Below are positions 234-11,228 of a DNA stretch of 50,897 nt, in pieces. Within the stretch, counting starts at the first letter, position 1. Each line of letters opens with the position of its first letter. The notes below the pieces were generated by a model. That model made no database searches, was not told the origin of the DNA, and saw only the letters and a program-made list of their open reading frames with translations. Origin of the DNA: Accumulibacter sp. (GTDB lineage Bacteria; Pseudomonadota; Gammaproteobacteria; Burkholderiales; Rhodocyclaceae); assembly GCA_017302455.1 (NCBI GenBank), contig JAFLDO010000035.1, forward strand, positions 1 through 50,897, in the 5' to 3' direction. The position numbers and the translations under genes were made by a program.

Positions 234-2312
234 TCAAACGGCTGCCACTTCGACCAGGCAATCGTAGAACGTCGCCCCGCCACCCATGTCGGTGAGCGCC
301 TGACTGGTCACTTCGTTGCAGTTGCGTCCGTCGGGCGACAGCTTGCGCCACCAGATCGACGTCGCCATGGCGACCCCTGGTCGAATGCGCTCGCTGACGA
401 TCGCACGGGCGCGGAATTCGCCACGCCGGTTGAAGATACGAACCGGGCTGTCGTTGGCAATACCCCGTGCCGAGGCGTCGGCGGGATGTAGATGCACCGC
501 CGGCGACTTTTCTTGTGCCAGGAAACGCGCCGAGTTGGCAAAACTGGTGTTGAGGAAATTGCGCGCCGGCGGCGTGATCAGCGCGAGCGGGAACTCGGCG
601 GCCAGCGTGCTTTGCCGCCACTCGCGAGGCGCGATGAAGTCGGGCAACGGGTCGAGGCCCTGGGAGAGCATGGACTGACTGTAGAACTCGCATTTGCCGG
701 AAGGCGTCGGGAAGCCTCCGTCGGCGAACGGCGCGGCGCCGCGCGGCAGGTTCAGGCGGGCATGGCCGTCGGCCTTGAGTTTCTCCCATGACAGCCCGGC
801 GAGGCGCGGATCACTCCAGTCGAAAGCCTGGCGGCACAGCGCCTCGTCATCGTCCGCGAAGCACGCGTCGCTGAAGCCCATTTGCCGGGCCAGACGACGG
901 AACAGCTCGGTGTTTGGCAGCGCTTCGCCGAGCGGCGCAATCGCCGGCTGATTGACCTGAATGTGAAGATGCCCGTACGACTTGTGGATGTCGAGCTGTT
1001 CCATGTGACTGGTCGCCGGCAACAGGATGTCGGCGTAGTCGGCGGTGTCCGTCTGGAACAGATCGTGGACAACCGTGAACAGATCCTGACGCGCGAAGCC
1101 GCGTACCACCTCCGCCGATTGCGGGGCAATCGCAACCGGATTGCTGTTGTACACGAAAAGCGCCTTGATCGCCGGTTGCGCGTGCAGGAGGTCGCGGCCG
1201 ATGGTGCTCATGTTGATCGTTCGAGGTGCCGAGTTGGGCATCAGGTCCGGACGTTCGAGGGCGGCCGTGTCGACCGGATAGTTGCCCGAAGTCGACAGCA
1301 GCACGCCGCCGGCAGGGTACCGCCAGGCGCCGGTGAACGCCGGCAGGCAGGAGATCGCGCGTAGCGCCATGCCGCCGCCGGCCGTGCGGTTGATGCCGTA
1401 GTTGGTACGGATTGCCGCCGGGCTGGTACTGGCGTAGTCGTGCGCGAGCTTCTCTATTTCTCCTTCGCTGATGCCGCAGATGGCAGCCACCCGCGCCGGT
1501 GCAAACTGCAGCGCGCGCTCCCTGAGGGCGTCGAAACCGAGCGTGTAGCGCGCGATGTAATCCGCATCGAGCAGCTCGTCGCGGATCAATACGTGCATCA
1601 GGCCGAGCGCCAGCGCGCTGTCGGTGCCCGGCAGCAGCGCGACGTGCTGGTCACATTTCTCGGCGGTCGCCGTGCGGCACGGATCGATGGCGATCAGGCG
1701 CGCGCCGCGCCGCCGCGCTTCCTGCGCCAAGCGCCAGAAGTGGAGGTTGGAGACGACGCTGTTGGTTCCCCAGAGGATGATCAGCCGCGCATCGACGACG
1801 CTCTCGGCGTCGAAGCCGACGCTCGCGCCGATCGTTGCCCGATAGCCCATCGCCCCCGCGCTGGCGCAGATCGTCCGGTCGAGTTGCGCGGCGCCGAGGC
1901 GGTGGAAGAAGCGGCGATCCATCGAACCGTAGCCGAGCAGGCCGGAATTGCCGGCGTAGCTATAGGGAACGATCGCTTCGGCGCCACTCTCGGCAGCGAT
2001 GCGGCGGAAGCGCTCGGCGATCGTCGCCAGCGCCACCTCCCAGGTGATCCGTTCGAAGCTGGCGCCCGGACCCTTGGCACCGACGCGACGCAGCGGGTGC
2101 AGCAGTCGATCGGGATGGTGGATGCGCTCGGGGTAGAAAGCGACCTTGGTGCACAGCACTCCGGCGGTCGGCGCGTGATCGGCGGCGCCGGCCACCTTGA
2201 TCACGCGACCGTCGCTGACGGTCACGTCGAGCGCGCAGGTATCCGGGCAATCGTGCGGGCAGGCGCCACGAACGGTGCCGCTCGCACCAGGCATCGGTGA
2301 GGTGTTGGCCAT
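234..2312 (-). CDS. Molybdopterin-dependent oxidoreductase, BisC/FdhF-like catalytic subunit
   Basis: A 692-residue member of the DMSO-reductase superfamily. Cysteines C18, C22, C26 and C54 form the N-terminal [4Fe-4S] motif (CPHDCPDTC, then GVLC). The TICASAGAMGYRATIG stretch sits where the Mo ligand is expected, with Cys the probable ligand. A C-terminal molydopterin-dinucleotide-binding domain follows from about residue 580 (VHLHPADASARGIANDSPV). No signal peptide or Tat motif is visible, so a cytoplasmic enzyme is likely. It has no adjacent electron-transfer or membrane-anchor subunit, and the substrate cannot be inferred. ATG 2312 is preceded by a GAGGA ribosome-binding site about 8 nt away. 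mogA, needed for the cofactor, lies 35 kb away in this window. The upstream 175 bp to the tonB-like gene show no obvious promoter. Confidence 0.85.
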   Translation of the reverse strand: MANTSPMPGASGTVRGACPHDCPDTCALDVTVSDGRVIKVAGAADHAPTAGVLCTKVAFYPERIHHPDRLLHPLRRVGAKGPGASFERITWEVALATIAERFRRIAAESGAEAIVPYSYAGNSGLLGYGSMDRRFFHRLGAAQLDRTICASAGAMGYRATIGASVGFDAESVVDARLIILWGTNSVVSNLHFWRLAQEARRRGARLIAIDPCRTATAEKCDQHVALLPGTDSALALGLMHVLIRDELLDADYIARYTLGFDALRERALQFAPARVAAICGISEGEIEKLAHDYASTSPAAIRTNYGINRTAGGGMALRAISCLPAFTGAWRYPAGGVLLSTSGNYPVDTAALERPDLMPNSAPRTINMSTIGRDLLHAQPAIKALFVYNSNPVAIAPQSAEVVRGFARQDLFTVVHDLFQTDTADYADILLPATSHMEQLDIHKSYGHLHIQVNQPAIAPLGEALPNTELFRRLARQMGFSDACFADDDEALCRQAFDWSDPRLAGLSWEKLKADGHARLNLPRGAAPFADGGFPTPSGKCEFYSQSMLSQGLDPLPDFIAPREWRQSTLAAEFPLALITPPARNFLNTSFANSARFLAQEKSPAVHLHPADASARGIANDSPVRIFNRRGEFRARAIVSERIRPGVAMATSIWWRKLSPDGRNCNEVTSQALTDMGGGATFYDCLVEVAAV

Positions 2313-2487: not shown

Positions 2488-3216
2488 TCAACTTTCCAGT
2501 GAGAAGTGCAGCGGCACCAGCACGAAAGCCTCGACGGCTTCCGTCCCCTGCCGGGCCGGGACGAATCGCCACCGCTCGACCGCCGCGCGCGCGGCTTCGT
2601 CCAGACGGGAAAAGCCGCTCGACTGCTTGACGTCCACCTCCAGCGGCTGGCCGTGCGCGCTCACCCTGACGCGCAGGAGCACCCTCCCCTCCTCGCCTAG
2701 CCGGCGCGAAGCGACCGGATAGACCGGCTTTGGATTGTGCAGATAAGCGGCATCAAAGCGTACCGCAATGCCTGACCCCGGCGTTGGCGTCACGGGTGCT
2801 GCCTCGGCCAGCCCGGGAGCAGCTTGTGACGGTACGGCCGAGGGACTCGTGGCGGCAACCGTCGTCGCGGTCGTCATCAGGGGCGGCGCGACCGGCGACG
2901 CTTTCTTCGCCGGAACGGCAGCAAACGCAACAGGCCTTGGTCGATCGACCGCTCTCGGCGACTCGCGCCTGCTCGCGCTCGCCTCCTCGACCTTTACAAG
3001 CGGCCGCGCCGGTTCGCGCACATCAACCCTCAGCGCTGGCAGAAACGCCGAAGTCGGCGGCGGCACGACCACCCCGAACGCGAGCCAGAGAGCGAAAAGA
3101 TGCACGCCGGCGGACAACAGCAGGAACAGACCGATCGGCCAGAACGATTGTCGGTACGCGTTGGGAAAGGCGTGGACCCCGCATGCCGTGGCGCTCAAGT
3201 CTGTCTCGGAGAGCAC
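2488..3216 (-). CDS. TonB-family energy transducer
   Basis: A 242-residue protein with one N-terminal membrane anchor (about residues 26-48, FWPIGLFLLLSAGVHLFALW), a Pro/Ala-rich periplasmic spacer, and a C-terminal TonB domain (NPKPVYPVASRRLGEEGRVLLRV... to VERWRFVPARQ). The family couples the inner-membrane proton-motive force, via ExbB/ExbD, to outer-membrane receptors. It is transcribed divergently from the copper-type receptor at 3484, so a dedicated TonB for that receptor is likely; no exbB/exbD is nearby. The reading frame opens with GTG at 3216; a TAGAAT -10-like hexamer lies on the minus strand at 3246-3241. The exact start is uncertain because no clear Shine-Dalgarno sequence precedes it. 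Confidence 0.85.
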   Translation of the reverse strand: MLSETDLSATACGVHAFPNAYRQSFWPIGLFLLLSAGVHLFALWLAFGVVVPPPTSAFLPALRVDVREPARPLVKVEEASASRRESPRAVDRPRPVAFAAVPAKKASPVAPPLMTTATTVAATSPSAVPSQAAPGLAEAAPVTPTPGSGIAVRFDAAYLHNPKPVYPVASRRLGEEGRVLLRVRVSAHGQPLEVDVKQSSGFSRLDEAARAAVERWRFVPARQGTEAVEAFVLVPLHFSLES

Positions 3217-3375
3217 TGCAATGTCGCCAAAAAGGGAGCCATTCTATGCTGCCCGACGGGCCTCCAGGTGCGGCATTTTGTCTCATGTCGCGCGCTGGCC
3301 GGCCAGGTGGCGCCAGCACCCGACGGCTTGCAGCTGCTGCTCATCGACAGCATGGGCAGTCACGGTCAGCCGAAA

Positions 3376-3389
3376 TTGATCCGCATCAA
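3376..3389 (+). promoter_or_regulatory. FNR/DNR-type box in the tonB / copper-receptor divergent promoter
   Basis: TTGATCCGCATCAA is a perfect match to the TTGAT-N4-ATCAA consensus of FNR, Anr and Dnr regulators. It lies in the 267-bp gap between the divergent tonB-like gene and the receptor gene. A TAGAAT hexamer at 3443-3448 could be the receptor's -10 element, placing the box about 72 bp upstream of the predicted start, a class I activator position. A closer, weaker -10 near 3409-3416 would give a class II position near -41. The -35 region is poor either way, as expected for an activated promoter. Confidence 0.75.
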
Positions 3390-3483
3390 AAACAATGCCT
3401 TGTGCGACGATATGCCACATTCCGCAATGCAACATCACTTCCTAGAATGCCGGGTTGAAGAAGACCACCCCAGGGAGGGAAAG

Positions 3484-5775
3484 ATGAAGTTTGCCAGGAA
3501 GCCCATCGCCGTCGCCGTTGCTCTGAGCCTGCCCAGCCTGTGGCAGGGCGCAGTCGCCCAGGAAAGCTCAGCCACGCCGGTCATGAGCGAAGTCGTCGTC
3601 AAGGCGTCGAAGATCCAGGACAAGGAGCCGTTTGGCGCCAGCCGTCTCGACGCGGCGAGCACCGCCCCCTATCGCGCAGCCACCAGCGATACCGCCAGCC
3701 TCCTCGACCGCCTGCCGGGCGTCAGCCTCTACGGTGCCGGTGGCGTTTCCAGCCTGCCGGTCATTCGCGGCCTGGCCGATGATCGCATCCGGATCAAGGT
3801 GGATGGCATGGACCTGATCTCGTCCTGCGCCAATCACATGAACCCGCCACTCTCCTACATCGACCCGACCAACGTCGGCAGCGTCATGCTGTTCGCCGGC
3901 ATCACGCCGGTCAGCGTCGGTGGCGACAGCATCGCCGGCACGATTCTCGTCAACTCGGCGGCGCCGGAGTTCGCCAAAGCGGGCGAGGGTACCTTGCTCA
4001 GGGGTCAGGCTGGCGCTTTCTATCGCAGCAACGGCAATGGCCGGGGAGCGAACCTGTCGGCGACGCTGGCCAACGAGATGTTGAGCGTAAACTACTCCGG
4101 TTCGACCGCACAGGCCGACAACTACACCGCCGGCGGCAGCTTCAAGCCTGCCGGACCGTCGCTGGGAACCTCCGAGTGGCTGGCCGGCGACGAAGTGGGC
4201 TCGTCACAGTACAAGTCCGAGAACCAGTCGCTCGGCTTCGCGCTGCGCTACGCGGAACATCTCCTCGAGCTCAAGTTCGGCTATCAGCACATCCCGTACC
4301 AGGGTTTCCCGAACGAGCGCATGGACATGACGCTCAACGACAGCCATCAGGTCAATCTCCGCTATCTGGGGCAGTACAACTGGGGTTCGCTGGAAGCGCG
4401 CGCCTACCACAACAATACCCGCCACAAAATGAACTTCCTCGAGGACAAGCTCACCTTGGCCAACCCCGCCGGTATGCCAATGGATACGGAGGGGAAAACC
4501 ACCGGCGCGGTACTCAAGGCGGATATCCTCGCCTCCGATCGCGATCTGTTCCGCGTTGGTGGCGAATATCAGAAGTACCGCCTCGACGACTGGTGGCCGG
4601 CGATCGGGCCCTATGTACCACCGATGGGTGGCATGGGAGGCATGGGCGGCATGGCTGGTATGAGCATGAACATGATGAACGGTTCGACGTTCTGGAACAT
4701 CAACGACGGCAAGCGCGACCGCTTCGATGTCTTCGGCGAATGGGAAGCACGCTGGAGTGGGCAATGGCTGTCGCAGCTGGGCGTGCGCAGCAGTACCGTG
4801 TGGATGGACACCGGCGATGTACAAGGCTACAACCCGGTGGACTACGGCAATCCGGCGAATCCGAATTCGATCCCGGGTGCGTTCAATGCCGCCGATCGCA
4901 GCCGGACCGATCACAACCTCGATCTGACGGCATTGCTCCGCTTCACCCCGGACGCCCAGCAGACCTACGAGGCCGGCTTTGCGCGCAAGACGCGCTCGCC
5001 GAACCTGTATGAGCGCTACGCCTGGTCAACCAACAACACCATGACGATGACCATGATCAACTGGTTCGGCGACGGTAACGGTTACGTCGGCAACCTCGAC
5101 CTGAAGCCGGAAGTCGCCAACACCGTCAGTGCCACCGCGCGTTGGCACGACGCCGCGCGCGAGCAGTGGAGCTTCAACATCACGCCCTACTACACCTACG
5201 TCCAGGATTACGTCGACGCACGTCGCTGTTCCGGAGGAGCGATGATGTCGCCCTGCGATCGCAACAACGTGACGGCAACGACAGGCTTCGTCAATCTCCA
5301 GTTTGTCAATCAGTCCGCCCGCCTCTACGGCGCCGACGTTTCCGGCTACTTCCCGGTGCTCCAGGGCGGTGCCCTCGGCAATGTGAAAATGACGGGGGTG
5401 GTGAGCTACGTCAGAGGCAGGAACCCGGACACGGACGACAACCTTTACCACATCATGCCCTTGAACGCGAAGCTGGCGCTGGTGCAACAATCGGGGCCCT
5501 GGACCAACACCCTCGAAGGCGTGTTTGTCGACGCCAAGACCAAGGTTTCGAGCGTTCGCAACGAGCTGGAAACCAGTGGCTATGGCTTGATGAACCTGCG
5601 CAGCAGCTACCAGTGGAAGCAGGTTCGCCTTGATGTCGGTGTCGAGAACGTGTTCAACCGACTCTACGATTCGCCGCTCGGCGGAGCCTATCTCGGCCAA
5701 AGGCCGATGGTCTACGGAACCGCCGTTCCCGGAATGGGGCGCTCGCTCTATGCCGGTGCCAACCTGCAGTTCTGA
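3484..5775 (+). CDS. TonB-dependent outer-membrane receptor, OprC/NosA-like copper receptor
   Basis: A 763-residue outer-membrane receptor. It has a signal peptide with likely cleavage after AVA at about residue 25, a TonB-box-like SEVVVKA segment, a plug domain (LLDRLPGVSLYG, VIRGLADDRIRIKVDGMD) and a beta-barrel ending in F. Two features point to copper: the plug has CANHM (C115, M119) and a barrel loop has HKM (H314, M316), matching the CxxxM-HxM copper site known in OprC. A Met-rich MGGMGGMGGMAGMSMNMM loop follows at about 381-398. The start is ATG 3484, chosen because AGGGAGGGA precedes it and the signal peptide begins there; the frame stays open further upstream. NosA-type relatives supply copper for N2O reductase. 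Copper specificity is inferred from the motifs. Confidence 0.9.
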   Translation: MKFARKPIAVAVALSLPSLWQGAVAQESSATPVMSEVVVKASKIQDKEPFGASRLDAASTAPYRAATSDTASLLDRLPGVSLYGAGGVSSLPVIRGLADDRIRIKVDGMDLISSCANHMNPPLSYIDPTNVGSVMLFAGITPVSVGGDSIAGTILVNSAAPEFAKAGEGTLLRGQAGAFYRSNGNGRGANLSATLANEMLSVNYSGSTAQADNYTAGGSFKPAGPSLGTSEWLAGDEVGSSQYKSENQSLGFALRYAEHLLELKFGYQHIPYQGFPNERMDMTLNDSHQVNLRYLGQYNWGSLEARAYHNNTRHKMNFLEDKLTLANPAGMPMDTEGKTTGAVLKADILASDRDLFRVGGEYQKYRLDDWWPAIGPYVPPMGGMGGMGGMAGMSMNMMNGSTFWNINDGKRDRFDVFGEWEARWSGQWLSQLGVRSSTVWMDTGDVQGYNPVDYGNPANPNSIPGAFNAADRSRTDHNLDLTALLRFTPDAQQTYEAGFARKTRSPNLYERYAWSTNNTMTMTMINWFGDGNGYVGNLDLKPEVANTVSATARWHDAAREQWSFNITPYYTYVQDYVDARRCSGGAMMSPCDRNNVTATTGFVNLQFVNQSARLYGADVSGYFPVLQGGALGNVKMTGVVSYVRGRNPDTDDNLYHIMPLNAKLALVQQSGPWTNTLEGVFVDAKTKVSSVRNELETSGYGLMNLRSSYQWKQVRLDVGVENVFNRLYDSPLGGAYLGQRPMVYGTAVPGMGRSLYAGANLQF

Positions 5776-5848
5776 GCCCAACCGCAACGACCGGTCGGCG
5801 GCAGGGTCAGGGATCGCTACCGCCGACTTCAGAAAGGAGGCAAGAGGA

Positions 5849-6496
5849 TTGCCGAAGGTCGAGACAAGCACTCGCGCTGCCCGTAGGCCGGCGTCGATCA
5901 CAAAGCGCCAACCCGTACATGTCGTTCGCGGACAACGCATCTACGCCGCCGACACCACCGGCACCGCCTGGCGGGTGCTGGCTGGGTCGGTGCGTCTCGA
6001 CCGACAGGAGCCAAACGGCGAACAGAGCTTTGCCAACCTCGCCATCATCGGCGACATCCTCGGCGCTGAAACACTGCTTTTCGGTCGCTACACCTTTACG
6101 GCCACCGCCCTGTCCGCGTGCGTACTCGCGCCATGGCCTGAAGGTCAGGCGGCACCGGCGGGCGATTCGCTGCTGCGGACGCTGGCGAAAGCCGAACGAC
6201 GTGCCGCCGAAGTCATCGCTCTGCGCTGCGGACAGGCGGCCGAGCGCGTTCGCCGACTGGTGATGCTGCTCTCGCATGTGCCCATCGAAGACCCCGCAGC
6301 AAACGCCGCGGCGCCCTTGCAGGTGGTCCTGCCGTCGCGGCAGGACATGGCCGACATCACCGCATTGAAGCTGGAGACCGTTTCCCGCATGGTGAGTCAG
6401 TTGCGGCAGACCGGCATCCTTGATCCATTGTGCCGCGACGGTCACCCGTCGCTGCGCAACTTCGTCGTCCGCGGAGCGGCCGCCGACCCGTACTGA
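5849..6496 (+). CDS. Crp/Fnr-family transcriptional regulator (FNR/DNR-like DNA specificity, no N-terminal Cys cluster)
   Basis: A 215-residue regulator with an N-terminal cyclic-nucleotide-binding-like sensor domain (about 18-95), a long linking helix (about 105-140) and a C-terminal winged helix-turn-helix (SRQDMADITALKLETVSRMV). The recognition helix carries E176, S179 and R180, the E-xx-SR arrangement by which FNR contacts TTGAT half-sites. Only three scattered cysteines are present, so an FNR-type iron-sulphur sensor is absent; a DNR-like or other ligand sensor is possible. The start is inferred as TTG 5849 because AAAGGAGG sits 8 nt upstream; the frame is open earlier, inside the receptor gene, but that part is out-of-frame receptor sequence. 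It lies 73 bp after the receptor gene and probably regulates it. Confidence 0.8.
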   Translation: MPKVETSTRAARRPASITKRQPVHVVRGQRIYAADTTGTAWRVLAGSVRLDRQEPNGEQSFANLAIIGDILGAETLLFGRYTFTATALSACVLAPWPEGQAAPAGDSLLRTLAKAERRAAEVIALRCGQAAERVRRLVMLLSHVPIEDPAANAAAPLQVVLPSRQDMADITALKLETVSRMVSQLRQTGILDPLCRDGHPSLRNFVVRGAAADPY

Positions 6497-6531
6497 GGCG
6501 GGGCAGACGGCGACTGGAGTAGAATGCGCCG

Positions 6532-7551
6532 ATGCTGATTCTCGGAATCGAATCCTCCTGCGACGAAACGGGTGTCGCGCTCTTCAGCACCGATGCCGGC
6601 GGCACCCTGCTCGCGCATGCCCTGCACTCGCAGGTGGCCATGCATCAGAACTATGGCGGCGTCGTCCCGGAACTTGCCTCGCGCGATCACATCCGGCGCA
6701 TCATCCCCCTGCTGCGCACGGTCCTGGCAAGCAGCGGACGCGCGCTGGCCGAGATTGACGCCGTCGCCTACACGCAGGGTCCGGGCTTGGCGGGAGCGCT
6801 GCTGGTCGGCGCCGCCTTTGCCGAGGCGCTGGCGACAGCACTGGGAGTGCCGACGGTGCCTGTCCATCACCTGGAAGGCCACCTGCTCTCGCCCTTGCTG
6901 TCCGGCAACCCGCCGCGCTTTCCCTTCGTCGCCCTGCTCGTTTCGGGTGGCCATAGCCAGTTGATGCGCGTGACCGGCGTCGGCAACTACGCACTCCTGG
7001 GTGAAACGCTCGACGACGCGGCCGGCGAGGCGTTCGACAAGACCGCCAAGCTGCTCGGCCTCGGTTACCCCGGCGGCCCGGCGCTCGCCGAACTGGCAGA
7101 ACGTGGCCGGCGCGACGAGGTGAAGCTGCCGCGGCCGATGTTGAAATCCGGTGATCTCGATTTCAGCTTCAGTGGCCTGAAGACGGCCGTTCTCACCAAG
7201 GTACGTGAGCTGGCGGCGATCACCGACCAGCAGCGCGCGGACATTGCGCGCGGTTTCCAGGACGCCATCGTCGAAGTGCTGGTCAGCAAGGCGATTCGCG
7301 CCGTTGCGCTGAGCGGCCTGCAGCAACTCGTCGTGGCGGGAGGCGTCGGCGCCAACCGCGAATTGCGGCGCCAGCTTGATGCCGCCGCCAGCCGGGCGAG
7401 AATCGCCGTCTTCTACCCCGAACTCGAATTCTGCACCGATAACGGCGCCATGATCGCCCTGGCCGGGGCCTTGCGCCTGCAAGCGGGACTGGCCGGCAAG
7501 GTGGCGGGTGCCTTCGCGGTGCGGCCACGCTGGCCGCTCACCGACAGCTAG
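6532..7551 (+). CDS. tsaD: tRNA N6-adenosine threonylcarbamoyltransferase TsaD
   Basis: 339 residues, normal for the family. TsaD transfers the threonylcarbamoyl group from TC-AMP to A37 of ANN-decoding tRNAs, working with TsaB and TsaE in the cytoplasm. Seen here: the N-terminal ASKHA phosphate loop ([14 protein letters not shown]), the metal-binding H113-LEG-H117 segment ([13 protein letters not shown]), the [15 protein letters not shown] motif, [23 protein letters not shown], and a C-terminal metal ligand D303 in [17 protein letters not shown] hexamer at 6520-6525 is only 6 nt before the ATG, so the transcript could be leaderless or nearly so; a GGAG at 6516-6519 is rather far for a good ribosome-binding site. 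Confidence 0.97.
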
Positions 7552-9082: not shown

Positions 9083-9439
9083 ATGGACATCATTTTCATC
9101 GACGACCTTCGCGCCTCCACGCTGATCGGCATCTACCCGCGCGAAAAAGCGATGCCCCAGACGATAGAAATCTCGCTGCGGATCGGCACCTCGACGGCCA
9201 GCGCCGGCGCTAGTGACGACATTCGCGATACGATCGACTACGCGGTGGTGGTGGACCGCCTGCGTGCCGAACTCGCCGCCAGACACTTCAATCTCCTCGA
9301 ACGCCTTGCCGAATACGTGGCCACCTTGCTGCTCGAGGAGTTCGGTGCCACCTGGGTGCGCGTCTCGATTGCCAAGCTCGGCATGATGCGCGGCGTGCAG
9401 CGCGTCGGCGTCGTCATCGAGCGCGGCGCGGCAGCGTGA
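9083..9439 (+). CDS. folB: Dihydroneopterin aldolase FolB
   Basis: 118 residues, the normal size. FolB cleaves 7,8-dihydroneopterin to 6-hydroxymethyl-7,8-dihydropterin in folate synthesis and acts as a cytoplasmic oligomer. The sequence has the N-terminal MDIIFIDDLRASTLIGIYPREK strand-loop, the DTIDYAVVVDRLR segment with the substrate-binding Tyr, the catalytic-site FNLLERLAEYVATLLL helix, and VRVSIAKLGMMRGVQRVGVVIER at the end. A TAGAAT hexamer at 9008-9013 is a candidate -10 element, giving a leader of about 63 nt. Folate genes folA and thyA lie 25 kb downstream. Confidence 0.95.
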   Translation: MDIIFIDDLRASTLIGIYPREKAMPQTIEISLRIGTSTASAGASDDIRDTIDYAVVVDRLRAELAARHFNLLERLAEYVATLLLEEFGATWVRVSIAKLGMMRGVQRVGVVIERGAAA

Positions 9440-9580
9440 TTCGGGGTCCGGTCGTCGCCCCGCGGCATGTCGGTGGGAACTCGCCAGGCAAATGCCCTGG
9501 CGCATCCAGACAGGCTCGGAGAACGCGGCGTTGCGGCAGCTCGCGCGCCGCGCGGCCGCTAGCCGCCTACTGCCGCGCTG

Positions 9581-11228
<1,648 letters not shown>

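What the first reader, a model, noticed from the sequence alone, without database searches (positions are those of the whole stretch)
2488..6496. A self-contained, FNR/DNR-controlled copper-import module: tonB / OprC-like receptor / Crp-Fnr regulator
Seen directly: a tonB-like gene diverges from an outer-membrane receptor whose plug has C115-xxx-M119 and whose barrel has H314-x-M316, plus a Met-rich loop; a Crp/Fnr regulator follows 73 bp later; and TTGAT-N4-ATCAA sits in the shared promoter. Established: OprC uses CxxxM-HxM to bind copper, NosA serves N2O reductase, and FNR/DNR regulators use this box. Inference: copper uptake is switched on under low oxygen or nitric oxide to feed copper enzymes of denitrification or respiration, by a regulator encoded in the same locus. 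I do not know of this exact three-gene arrangement being described.
Basis: partly seen in the sequence, partly recalled or inferred. Interest (0 to 1): 0.78.

Follow-up and report, generated by a model that had tools for sequence, protein, structure and literature searches.

The report
Copper-import promoter with two redox switches
A wastewater bacterium carries a gene for a likely copper-importing outer-membrane protein whose promoter holds a low-oxygen switch and, beside it, a more constant element of a redox-regulator type that also marks other copper-linked genes, which suggests how such bacteria may tune copper supply for respiration.

Summary
In detail: tonB (2488-3216, -), an OprC-like receptor (3484-5775, +), a Crp/Fnr-family gene (5849-6496, +) and an exact TTGATCCGCATCAA box (3376-3389). 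The receptor is probably a copper importer: C115/M119/H314/M316 are invariant in 22 of 22 aligned relatives and OprC is the best sequence and fold match. The regulatory inference is only partly right. The box is kept in a subset of orthologue promoters; among these only the window has the regulator beside it, and the genome encodes a canonical FNR. It resembles published RegA/RegR/PrrA boxes, lies within 200 bp upstream of regB-like genes in 9 of 11 loci read, and marks a second TonB-receptor operon and a cluster with a copper P-ATPase in this genome. The FNR box sits 27 bp upstream of it in seven species. I read the locus as part of a copper-acquisition regulon under a RegB/RegA-type system, with FNR input added in one subclade. 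The Crp/Fnr gene is a recurrent partner of such receptors with unknown target. Nothing was tested at the bench.

The parts
2488..3216 (-). tonB-like gene, divergent from the receptor
   Evidence: TonB_C E=2e-20; tonB-like genes also lie beside the receptor in other arrangements in relatives
3376..3389 (.). exact FNR-type box TTGATCCGCATCAA; predicted centre about -72 from the predicted start
   Evidence: kept at 27 bp from the next element in 7 species with 0-2 mismatches
3403..3422 (+). RegA/RegR-type element TGCGACGATATGCCACATTC (core GYGRC-N5-GYCRC), predicted centre about -44
   Evidence: core in 24 of 25 orthologue promoters; 3 exact strict sites in own genome; core within 200 bp upstream of regB in 9 of 11 loci read
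3443..3448 (+). predicted -10 element TAGAAT, 40 bp after the first T of the element
   Evidence: a -10-like hexamer 39-41 bp after that T was listed for 19 of 24 element-bearing promoters, none for 5
3484..5775 (+). OprC-like TonB-dependent receptor, 763 aa, C115/M119/H314/M316
5849..6496 (+). Crp/Fnr-family regulator (called REG here), 215 aa, TTG start preceded by GAAAGGAGG, no N-terminal Cys cluster

Best explanation
The receptor imports copper across the outer membrane with TonB energy, through an OprC-type CxxxM-HxM site (inferred from conservation). Its promoter integrates two signals. The core input is a RegA/PrrA/RegR-type response regulator, driven by a RegB-like kinase encoded elsewhere in this genome (contig C116), acting at 3403-3422 about 44 bp before the predicted start. 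The same element marks other copper-linked operons and regBA-like genes themselves. In one Accumulibacter subclade a second input, FNR bound upstream in fixed register (centre about -72), adds low-oxygen activation. The Crp/Fnr gene downstream (REG) is probably co-transcribed and so a target of this circuit, not its proven controller; it may feed back on FNR-type sites. Net effect: copper uptake is raised when the respiratory chain is reduced, oxygen is low or copper enzymes are undersupplied. Shown by sequence: the sites, their spacing, conservation and linkage. Inferred: who binds, the sign of the effect, the signal, co-transcription.
For: Core element in 24 of 25 receptor promoters. The one receptor without it (G050) lies in a genome with no strong RegA match (best E=3.9e-20). 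Within the 28 genus genomes receptor and strong RegA match co-occur: 21 both, 2 receptor only, 1 RegA only, 4 neither (Fisher p=0.003; 24 genomes at least 90% complete: 19/1/1/3, p=0.008), against p=0.14 for receptor and REG (sets typed by hand; the broken receptor of G010 counted as present, an 82-residue fragment in G016 as absent). Core upstream of regB within 200 bp in 9 of 11 loci read (of 35 strong RegA matches), a tenth at 254 bp; shuffles 1.5% per 200 bp. In three of the nine (L051, L056, L248) the site lies in a gap shared with a divergent receptor. regBA-like genes sit next to TonB receptors in G019, G035, G059 and, behind one further gene, G060. Strict element: 58 sites in 41 of 297 family genomes against 2 for the reversed control; 15 of 23 new loci read carry a receptor, PCuAC or NosL-like match, one of them weak. 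The RegB-like kinases keep GGxxNP in 11 of 11 and a cysteine in the aligned Q-[VI]-x-x-C-K stretch in 10 of 11. Published boxes RegR GNGRCRTTNNGNCGC and PrrA YSCGGC(5)GWCRMA (PMC5506826, passages): the window site fits 9 of 11 specified RegR positions. R. capsulatus RegA binds copper (PMC9147068, passages). Canonical FNR in own genome. FNR box at 27 bp in seven species and at 38 bp in an eighth promoter.
Against: No binding or expression data. Own RegA and RegB fall below the NCBIfam equivalog cut-offs (209.2 against 250, 262.4 against 350 bits), so orthology to the classic redox system is not established. Two element-bearing genomes lack a strong RegA match (G012, G024; 88% and 93% complete), and G005 has RegA but no receptor match. 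Two of 11 regBA loci lack the core within 200 bp of regB (L249, L253). Published RegA boxes are degenerate, so a motif match alone is weak. Of 49 element loci read, 10 had no seed match, two matched only unrelated kinases, and two (L212, L231) matched only seeds taken from the same place. The core was first found by dyad counting in receptor-REG operons, so the counts there are not independent of discovery. Relatedness of the genomes is not corrected in the Fisher test.
Confidence: 0.6

Rival explanations
1. One reading: the local Crp/Fnr regulator, sensing low oxygen or NO, binds TTGATCCGCATCAA and switches on the receptor.
For: Exact box; REG's recognition helix keeps T177, S179 and R180 invariant in 23 aligned members, the FNR-type reading head by recall; FNR-like boxes with <=1 mismatch near REG itself in 4 of 43 loci against 0.5% in shuffles, two of the four with the same site sequence.
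Against: Six of seven Accumulibacter genomes with the box at this spacing have no detected REG; G035, with the box at 38 bp, has REG on another contig. Only 1 of 33 receptor-REG operons has a box with <=1 mismatch. A canonical FNR exists in the genome.
Confidence: 0.12
2. REG itself, not RegA, reads the GYGRC-N5-GYCRC element, making receptor plus REG an autoregulated copper module.
For: 27 of 32 receptor-REG promoters and 12 of 42 other REG loci carry the core (shuffles 2.9% and 4%).
Against: Of 23 genomes with an element-bearing receptor only 9 have a detected REG; the single-contig genome G015 has none. The odd 15-bp dyad differs from the even FNR/CRP geometry (recalled). The element also lies before regBA-like genes.
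Confidence: 0.12
3. A third, unidentified copper-responsive regulator reads the element, and the resemblance to RegA boxes is incidental.
For: The strict site occurs only three times in this genome, which is narrow for a global redox regulator.
Against: regBA-like genes are the regulator genes seen recurrently both behind the element and beside receptors; other regulators were not searched for systematically.
Confidence: 0.12
4. The receptor takes up another metal or a metal chelate rather than ionic copper.
For: It is below the TIGR01778 TonB-copper cut-off (102.2 against 472.45 bits) and scores higher, also below cut-off, against heme/hemoglobin receptor models (137.7 and 118.9).
Against: All four OprC copper ligands invariant in 22 of 22; OprC is the best sequence and fold match; linked homologues sit beside PCuAC or DUF2946 genes in several loci.
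Confidence: 0.08

Closest known systems
OprC (Pseudomonas aeruginosa) / NosA (P. stutzeri)
   Same: TonB-dependent barrel, CxxxM-HxM ligands, Met-rich stretch; OprC/NosA reported expressed without oxygen and repressed by copper (PMC8610252, passages)
   Different: About 20% identity over the fold; below the TIGR01778 cut-off; no RegA-type element is mentioned in the passages read
RegB/RegA, PrrB/PrrA, RegS/RegR two-component systems
   Same: GGxxNP motif, conserved cysteine, receiver plus C-terminal DNA-binding domain matching PrrA (1umq, E=2e-12) and a Burkholderia-type response regulator structure (3rqi, E=1e-52), similar box
   Different: Below equivalog cut-offs; no cysteine just before the DNA-binding helices, unlike group 1 RegA as described in PMC9147068; linked here to copper-type receptors
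CrtA (BfrG) copper-chelate receptor operons with CruR (DUF2946) and PepSY_TM
   Same: Copper-linked TonB receptors; DUF2946 and PepSY-like genes occur in element-bearing operons here; some crtA loci hold tonB/exbBD or PCuAC (PMC12914433, outline and passages)
   Different: CruR control is post-transcriptional (PMC9426467, passages); here a DNA element; the window receptor is OprC-like
FNR-dependent promoters
   Same: Exact TTGATNNNNATCAA, low-oxygen logic
   Different: The box sits upstream of a second activator-like site, in a subclade only

Membership tests
OprC/NosA copper receptors | CxxxM in plug | tested here: met
   C115/M119 invariant in 22 of 22 and aligned with the OprC CxxxM
OprC/NosA copper receptors | HxM in barrel wall | tested here: met
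   H314/M316 invariant in 22 of 22; aligned with the OprC HxM
OprC/NosA copper receptors | curated TIGR01778 TonB-copper cut-off | tested here: not met
   102.2 against 472.45 bits; so called OprC-like, not an OprC equivalog
OprC/NosA copper receptors | copper binding and import | not testable with these tools
   needs protein or mutant
FNR/DNR regulators (for REG) | N-terminal cysteine cluster for [4Fe-4S] (FNR only) | tested here: not met
   first cysteine of REG is residue 91 (sequence)
FNR/DNR regulators (for REG) | curated FnrL/FixK cut-offs | tested here: not met
   25.7 and 40.8 against 300 bits; the general Pfam Crp-type models are met
FNR/DNR regulators (for REG) | heme or NO sensing (DNR) | not testable with these tools
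   -
RegB/RegA two-component family (own C116 pair) | RegB quinone motif GGxxNP and conserved Cys | tested here: met
   11 of 11 and 10 of 11 aligned kinases, own included in both
RegB/RegA two-component family (own C116 pair) | curated NF033791/NF033792 cut-offs | tested here: not met
   209.2 against 250 and 262.4 against 350 bits; both are nonetheless the best-scoring models
RegB/RegA two-component family (own C116 pair) | group 1 RegA cysteine before the DNA-binding domain | tested here: not met
   no cysteine in that stretch (alignment)
RegB/RegA two-component family (own C116 pair) | senC beside regA/regB (group 1) | not tested
   neighbours in L247 listed as ORFs but not scanned against families
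RegA/RegR box | GNGRCRTTNNGNCGC | tested here: inconclusive
   window site fits 9 of 11 specified positions, GCGACAATTTGTCGC 10 of 11 (counted by hand); binding untested

The most novel reading that the evidence does not exclude
Rhodocyclaceae and related betaproteobacteria carry a copper-acquisition regulon built on a diverged RegB/RegA pair that has become a copper-supply sensor (the RegB cysteine or the quinone pool reporting undersupplied copper enzymes). It controls OprC-like and other TonB receptors, PepSY- and PCuAC-type genes, a copper P-ATPase/NosL-like cluster and itself through GYGRC-N5-GYCRC. A new Crp/Fnr subfamily (REG) serves as its second tier, and FNR sites were added in helical register where low-oxygen respiration demands copper.
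Probability: 0.3. Interest if true: 0.75.

Novelty: new variant of a known kind. Interest (0 to 1): 0.55.

Why it matters
How Gram-negative bacteria switch on copper uptake is poorly known; CruR is a described post-transcriptional case (PMC9426467, passages). If the regulon is real, it names a transcriptional system, an element and a target list that can be tested directly. Candidatus Accumulibacter is a key organism of phosphorus removal from wastewater (PMC11131965, listing), and this genome carries nosZ, the gene of the copper enzyme that removes N2O, so copper supply under low oxygen could bear on greenhouse-gas release. It also ties a redox regulator family, one member of which binds copper, to copper acquisition.

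Tried and rejected
Box-REG pairing as the conserved unit: rejected, box and REG mostly occur apart. REG as reader of the second element: considered first (note), then demoted when 14 of 23 element-bearing genomes showed no REG. FNR boxes upstream of receptor-REG operons at large: no clear excess (6 of 33 with <=2 mismatches against 9% in shuffles). The sigma-70 scan of 3200-6560 gave no -35/-10 pair, and no terminator-like site on the + strand between receptor and REG; both say little. The fold of REG matches the CRP/FNR fold generally (best a Thermus CRP-family protein, TM 0.62 and 0.68) and does not reveal a ligand. Neighbours of the receptor in other Accumulibacter (scanned for L042, L047, L054, L055, L056) were mostly unrelated to copper (M1 peptidase-like, Na/Pi cotransporter, ABC transporter, kinase; several without a family). 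Paper searches for a RegA link to copper uptake or a REG-type copper regulator listed none that I recognised; only listings were read except for the papers cited, and subscription papers are missing from the library.

Rows left out before counts: 4 of 80 named loci without a callable REG ORF (L143, L152, L161, L162); one REC and one REG promoter for short sequence; for the 25 promoters, from the receptor loci I left out L031 (another family; its promoter does hold a strict site), L034 (cut by the contig start) and L037-L040 (fragments or weak matches), and used longer fetches for L022, L032; G035 counts twice, so 24 genomes. RegA-like loci without a clear RegB (L250, L059) are not among the 11.

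Full report
What is there. The window is contig 56 of a 4.93-Mb genome. Sister genomes of the same genus match named Candidatus Accumulibacter contigs by place and length (for example G019 contig 107 and the contig of L113, both 163,619 bases), so the host is taken to be an Accumulibacter. tonB (2488-3216, -) diverges from a 763-aa TonB-dependent receptor (3484-5775, +); a Crp/Fnr-family gene follows after 73 bp (5849-6496, +), best started at a TTG behind GAAAGGAGG. The box TTGATCCGCATCAA is exact at 3376-3389. The genome has ten exact boxes and none for the pattern read backwards; two others lie near a NapA-like ORF and between a universal-stress-like and a hemerythrin-like ORF (named by reading the sequences, no family search).

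The receptor. A single-sequence search of solved structures returns only OprC entries (six sequences, best E=3e-20). A profile of 22 relatives aligns with OprC end to end (E=3e-126; two OprC-like members help this) with both the CxxxM and the HxM in register. C115, M119, H314 and M316 are invariant in all 22. The predicted model (mean pLDDT 76) has OprC chains as its first 28 fold matches. The protein is below the TIGR01778 cut-off, so I call it OprC-like. Copper is supported further by neighbours in relatives: PCuAC (L082 by Pfam, L056 and L248 by similarity), DUF2946 (L088 and L121 by Pfam, L240 by weak similarity); DUF2946 is the copper-responsive CruR family (PMC9426467, passages).

The local regulator. 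REG belongs to a distinct Crp/Fnr subfamily with G38, W41, D51, C91 and W96 invariant in 23 aligned members. Its first cysteine is residue 91, and it scores far under the cut-offs of the four NCBIfam Crp/Fnr models listed, though it passes three general Pfam models. Relatives occur in 53 of 297 family genomes at E<=1e-15. Among 76 named loci with a callable REG, the receptor lies directly upstream in 33, within three genes in 41, tonB within three genes in 13, and receptor-REG-tonB in a row in 9, in Azonexus, Dechloromonas and related bins. The three-gene association is therefore wider than the window, though in the window tonB is on the other side. Inside the genus it is rare: among the window and 20 neighbourhoods REG follows the receptor in the window, G019 and G006 only.

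The FNR box is a subclade feature. In 25 receptor promoters (24 genomes) the box stands 27 bp before a second element with 0 mismatches in five (window, G008, G001, G009, G011), 1 in G018 and 2 in G024; an eighth promoter (G035) has an exact box at 38 bp, about one helical turn further. The other 17 have no box with fewer than 3 mismatches. Of the seven Accumulibacter genomes only the window's has a detected REG (up to 51 candidates scored per genome), and only 1 of 33 receptor-REG operons shows a box with <=1 mismatch. The genome encodes a canonical FNR with its cysteine cluster, above the curated cut-off (240.2 against 228 bits), which is the simplest reader of the box.

The second element. 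Dyad counting upstream of receptor-REG operons found GCGAC-N5-GTCGC in 16 of 33 against 0.05 in shuffles. The form GYGRC-N5-GYCRC is present in 24 of 25 receptor-orthologue promoters, 39-41 bp before a -10-like TAGAAT, GAGAAT or TAAGAT in the 19 promoters where one was listed; in 27 of 32 receptor-REG promoters (shuffles 2.9%) and in 12 of 42 other REG loci (4%). The strict form TGYGRCRNNNTGYCRCATTC occurs 58 times in 41 of 297 family genomes, reversed control 2, and in 20 of 61 relatives, control 0. In the own genome it occurs exactly three times: in the window; before a second TonB receptor followed by PepSY-, TonB-, ExbB- and ExbD-like ORFs (contig 62, 7764); and about 600 bp before a run of same-strand ORFs with an ABC transporter, a thioredoxin-like protein, a copper-type P-ATPase and a NosL-like protein (contig 62, 20412), where a further core site precedes the NosL-like ORF. 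ATPase, ABC and thioredoxin-like proteins are named by family search; PepSY, ExbB, ExbD and NosL by reading, and NCBIfam gave no family for the PepSY- and NosL-like ORFs. Of 49 element loci read, 37 carry a receptor, PepSY-, PCuAC-, DUF2946-, NosL-like, REG or regBA match (two of them only to seeds from the same place), 2 match only unrelated kinases and 10 match nothing; many of the 49 are orthologous and not independent.

Who reads it. The core fits published RegR, PrrA and RegA boxes (PMC5506826, passages). A RegB/RegA-like pair is encoded in the own genome (contig 116). I read 11 of 35 strong RegA loci: in 9 the core lies within 200 bp upstream of regB, in a tenth 254 bp upstream (shuffles 1.5%); three of the nine are gaps shared with a divergent receptor. 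The pair sits beside receptors in four genomes: divergent from the receptor in G019, G035 and G059 (the last two with PCuAC-like genes), and behind a DUF2946-like/receptor/PepSY-like run in G060. In the genus, receptor and strong RegA match co-occur (21/2/1/4, p=0.003; 19/1/1/3, p=0.008 in the 24 more complete genomes), more tightly than receptor and REG (9/14/0/5, p=0.14); relatedness is not corrected. The one receptor lacking the element (G050) is in a genome lacking a strong RegA match. The kinases keep GGxxNP (11 of 11) and an aligned cysteine (10 of 11). Against: both proteins are under the equivalog cut-offs, the group 1 RegA cysteine is absent, two incomplete genomes have the element without a strong RegA match, and two of 11 regBA loci lack the core within 200 bp.

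Mechanism. Predicted centres are about -44 for the RegA-type site and -72 for the FNR box, relative to a start inferred from the -10. I propose RegA-type activation at the core promoter, with FNR adding low-oxygen input in one subclade, so that copper uptake follows respiratory demand. Precedents: OprC and NosA are reported to be expressed without oxygen (PMC8610252, passages; [quoted passage not shown] japonicum RegR affects nos and copper homeostasis genes (PMC4064962, passages), R. capsulatus RegA binds copper (PMC9147068, passages), and RegA affects TonB-dependent iron uptake, probably indirectly, in Methylomonas (PMC13274454, passages). The sign of regulation, the signal and REG's target are not shown.

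Novelty. Every part is of a known kind. I did not find the combination, a RegA-type element shared by TonB copper-type receptors, metal-transport genes and regBA with FNR in fixed register, in the held literature (listings).

Noticed in passing
own genome contig 62, L208:2109-7646 and L208:11441-19815: A second TonB receptor with PepSY-, TonB-, ExbB- and ExbD-like ORFs, and an ABC/thioredoxin-like/copper P-ATPase/NosL-like cluster, both behind the same element; a transposase-like ORF (9238-10392, by eye) lies between them.
   Followed up: partly
L131, L145, L149, L154, L158, L178 upstream of the receptor: An extra half-site makes a second, overlapping palindrome TTGTC-N4-GACAA with FNR-like spacing (6 of 33 promoters); could be a REG site or a RegA multimer site.
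   Followed up: no
L051:5140-7918 (G019): The receptor gene of Ca. Accumulibacter contiguus is split over two frames while REG and the divergent regBA-like genes stay open; assembly error or decay not decided.
   Followed up: no
L122, L140, L145, L149, L155: A second receptor-cluster ORF follows soon after REG, in some loci with further genes and a tonB.
   Followed up: partly
L082, L183, L187, L188: REG without a receptor directly upstream but beside a PCuAC-type gene (Pfam for L082; the others by sequence cluster), again a copper setting.
   Followed up: partly
own genome contig 70, 1634-8436: nosZ (934 bits, above cut-off) lies about 5 kb from another Crp/Fnr-family gene; whether its promoter has either element was not examined, beyond the absence of an exact FNR box or strict element on that contig.
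   Followed up: no
window 234-2312 (-): Molybdopterin oxidoreductase beside tonB; the NCBIfam models shown (formate dehydrogenase, DMSO reductase and others) are matched only below their cut-offs.
   Followed up: no
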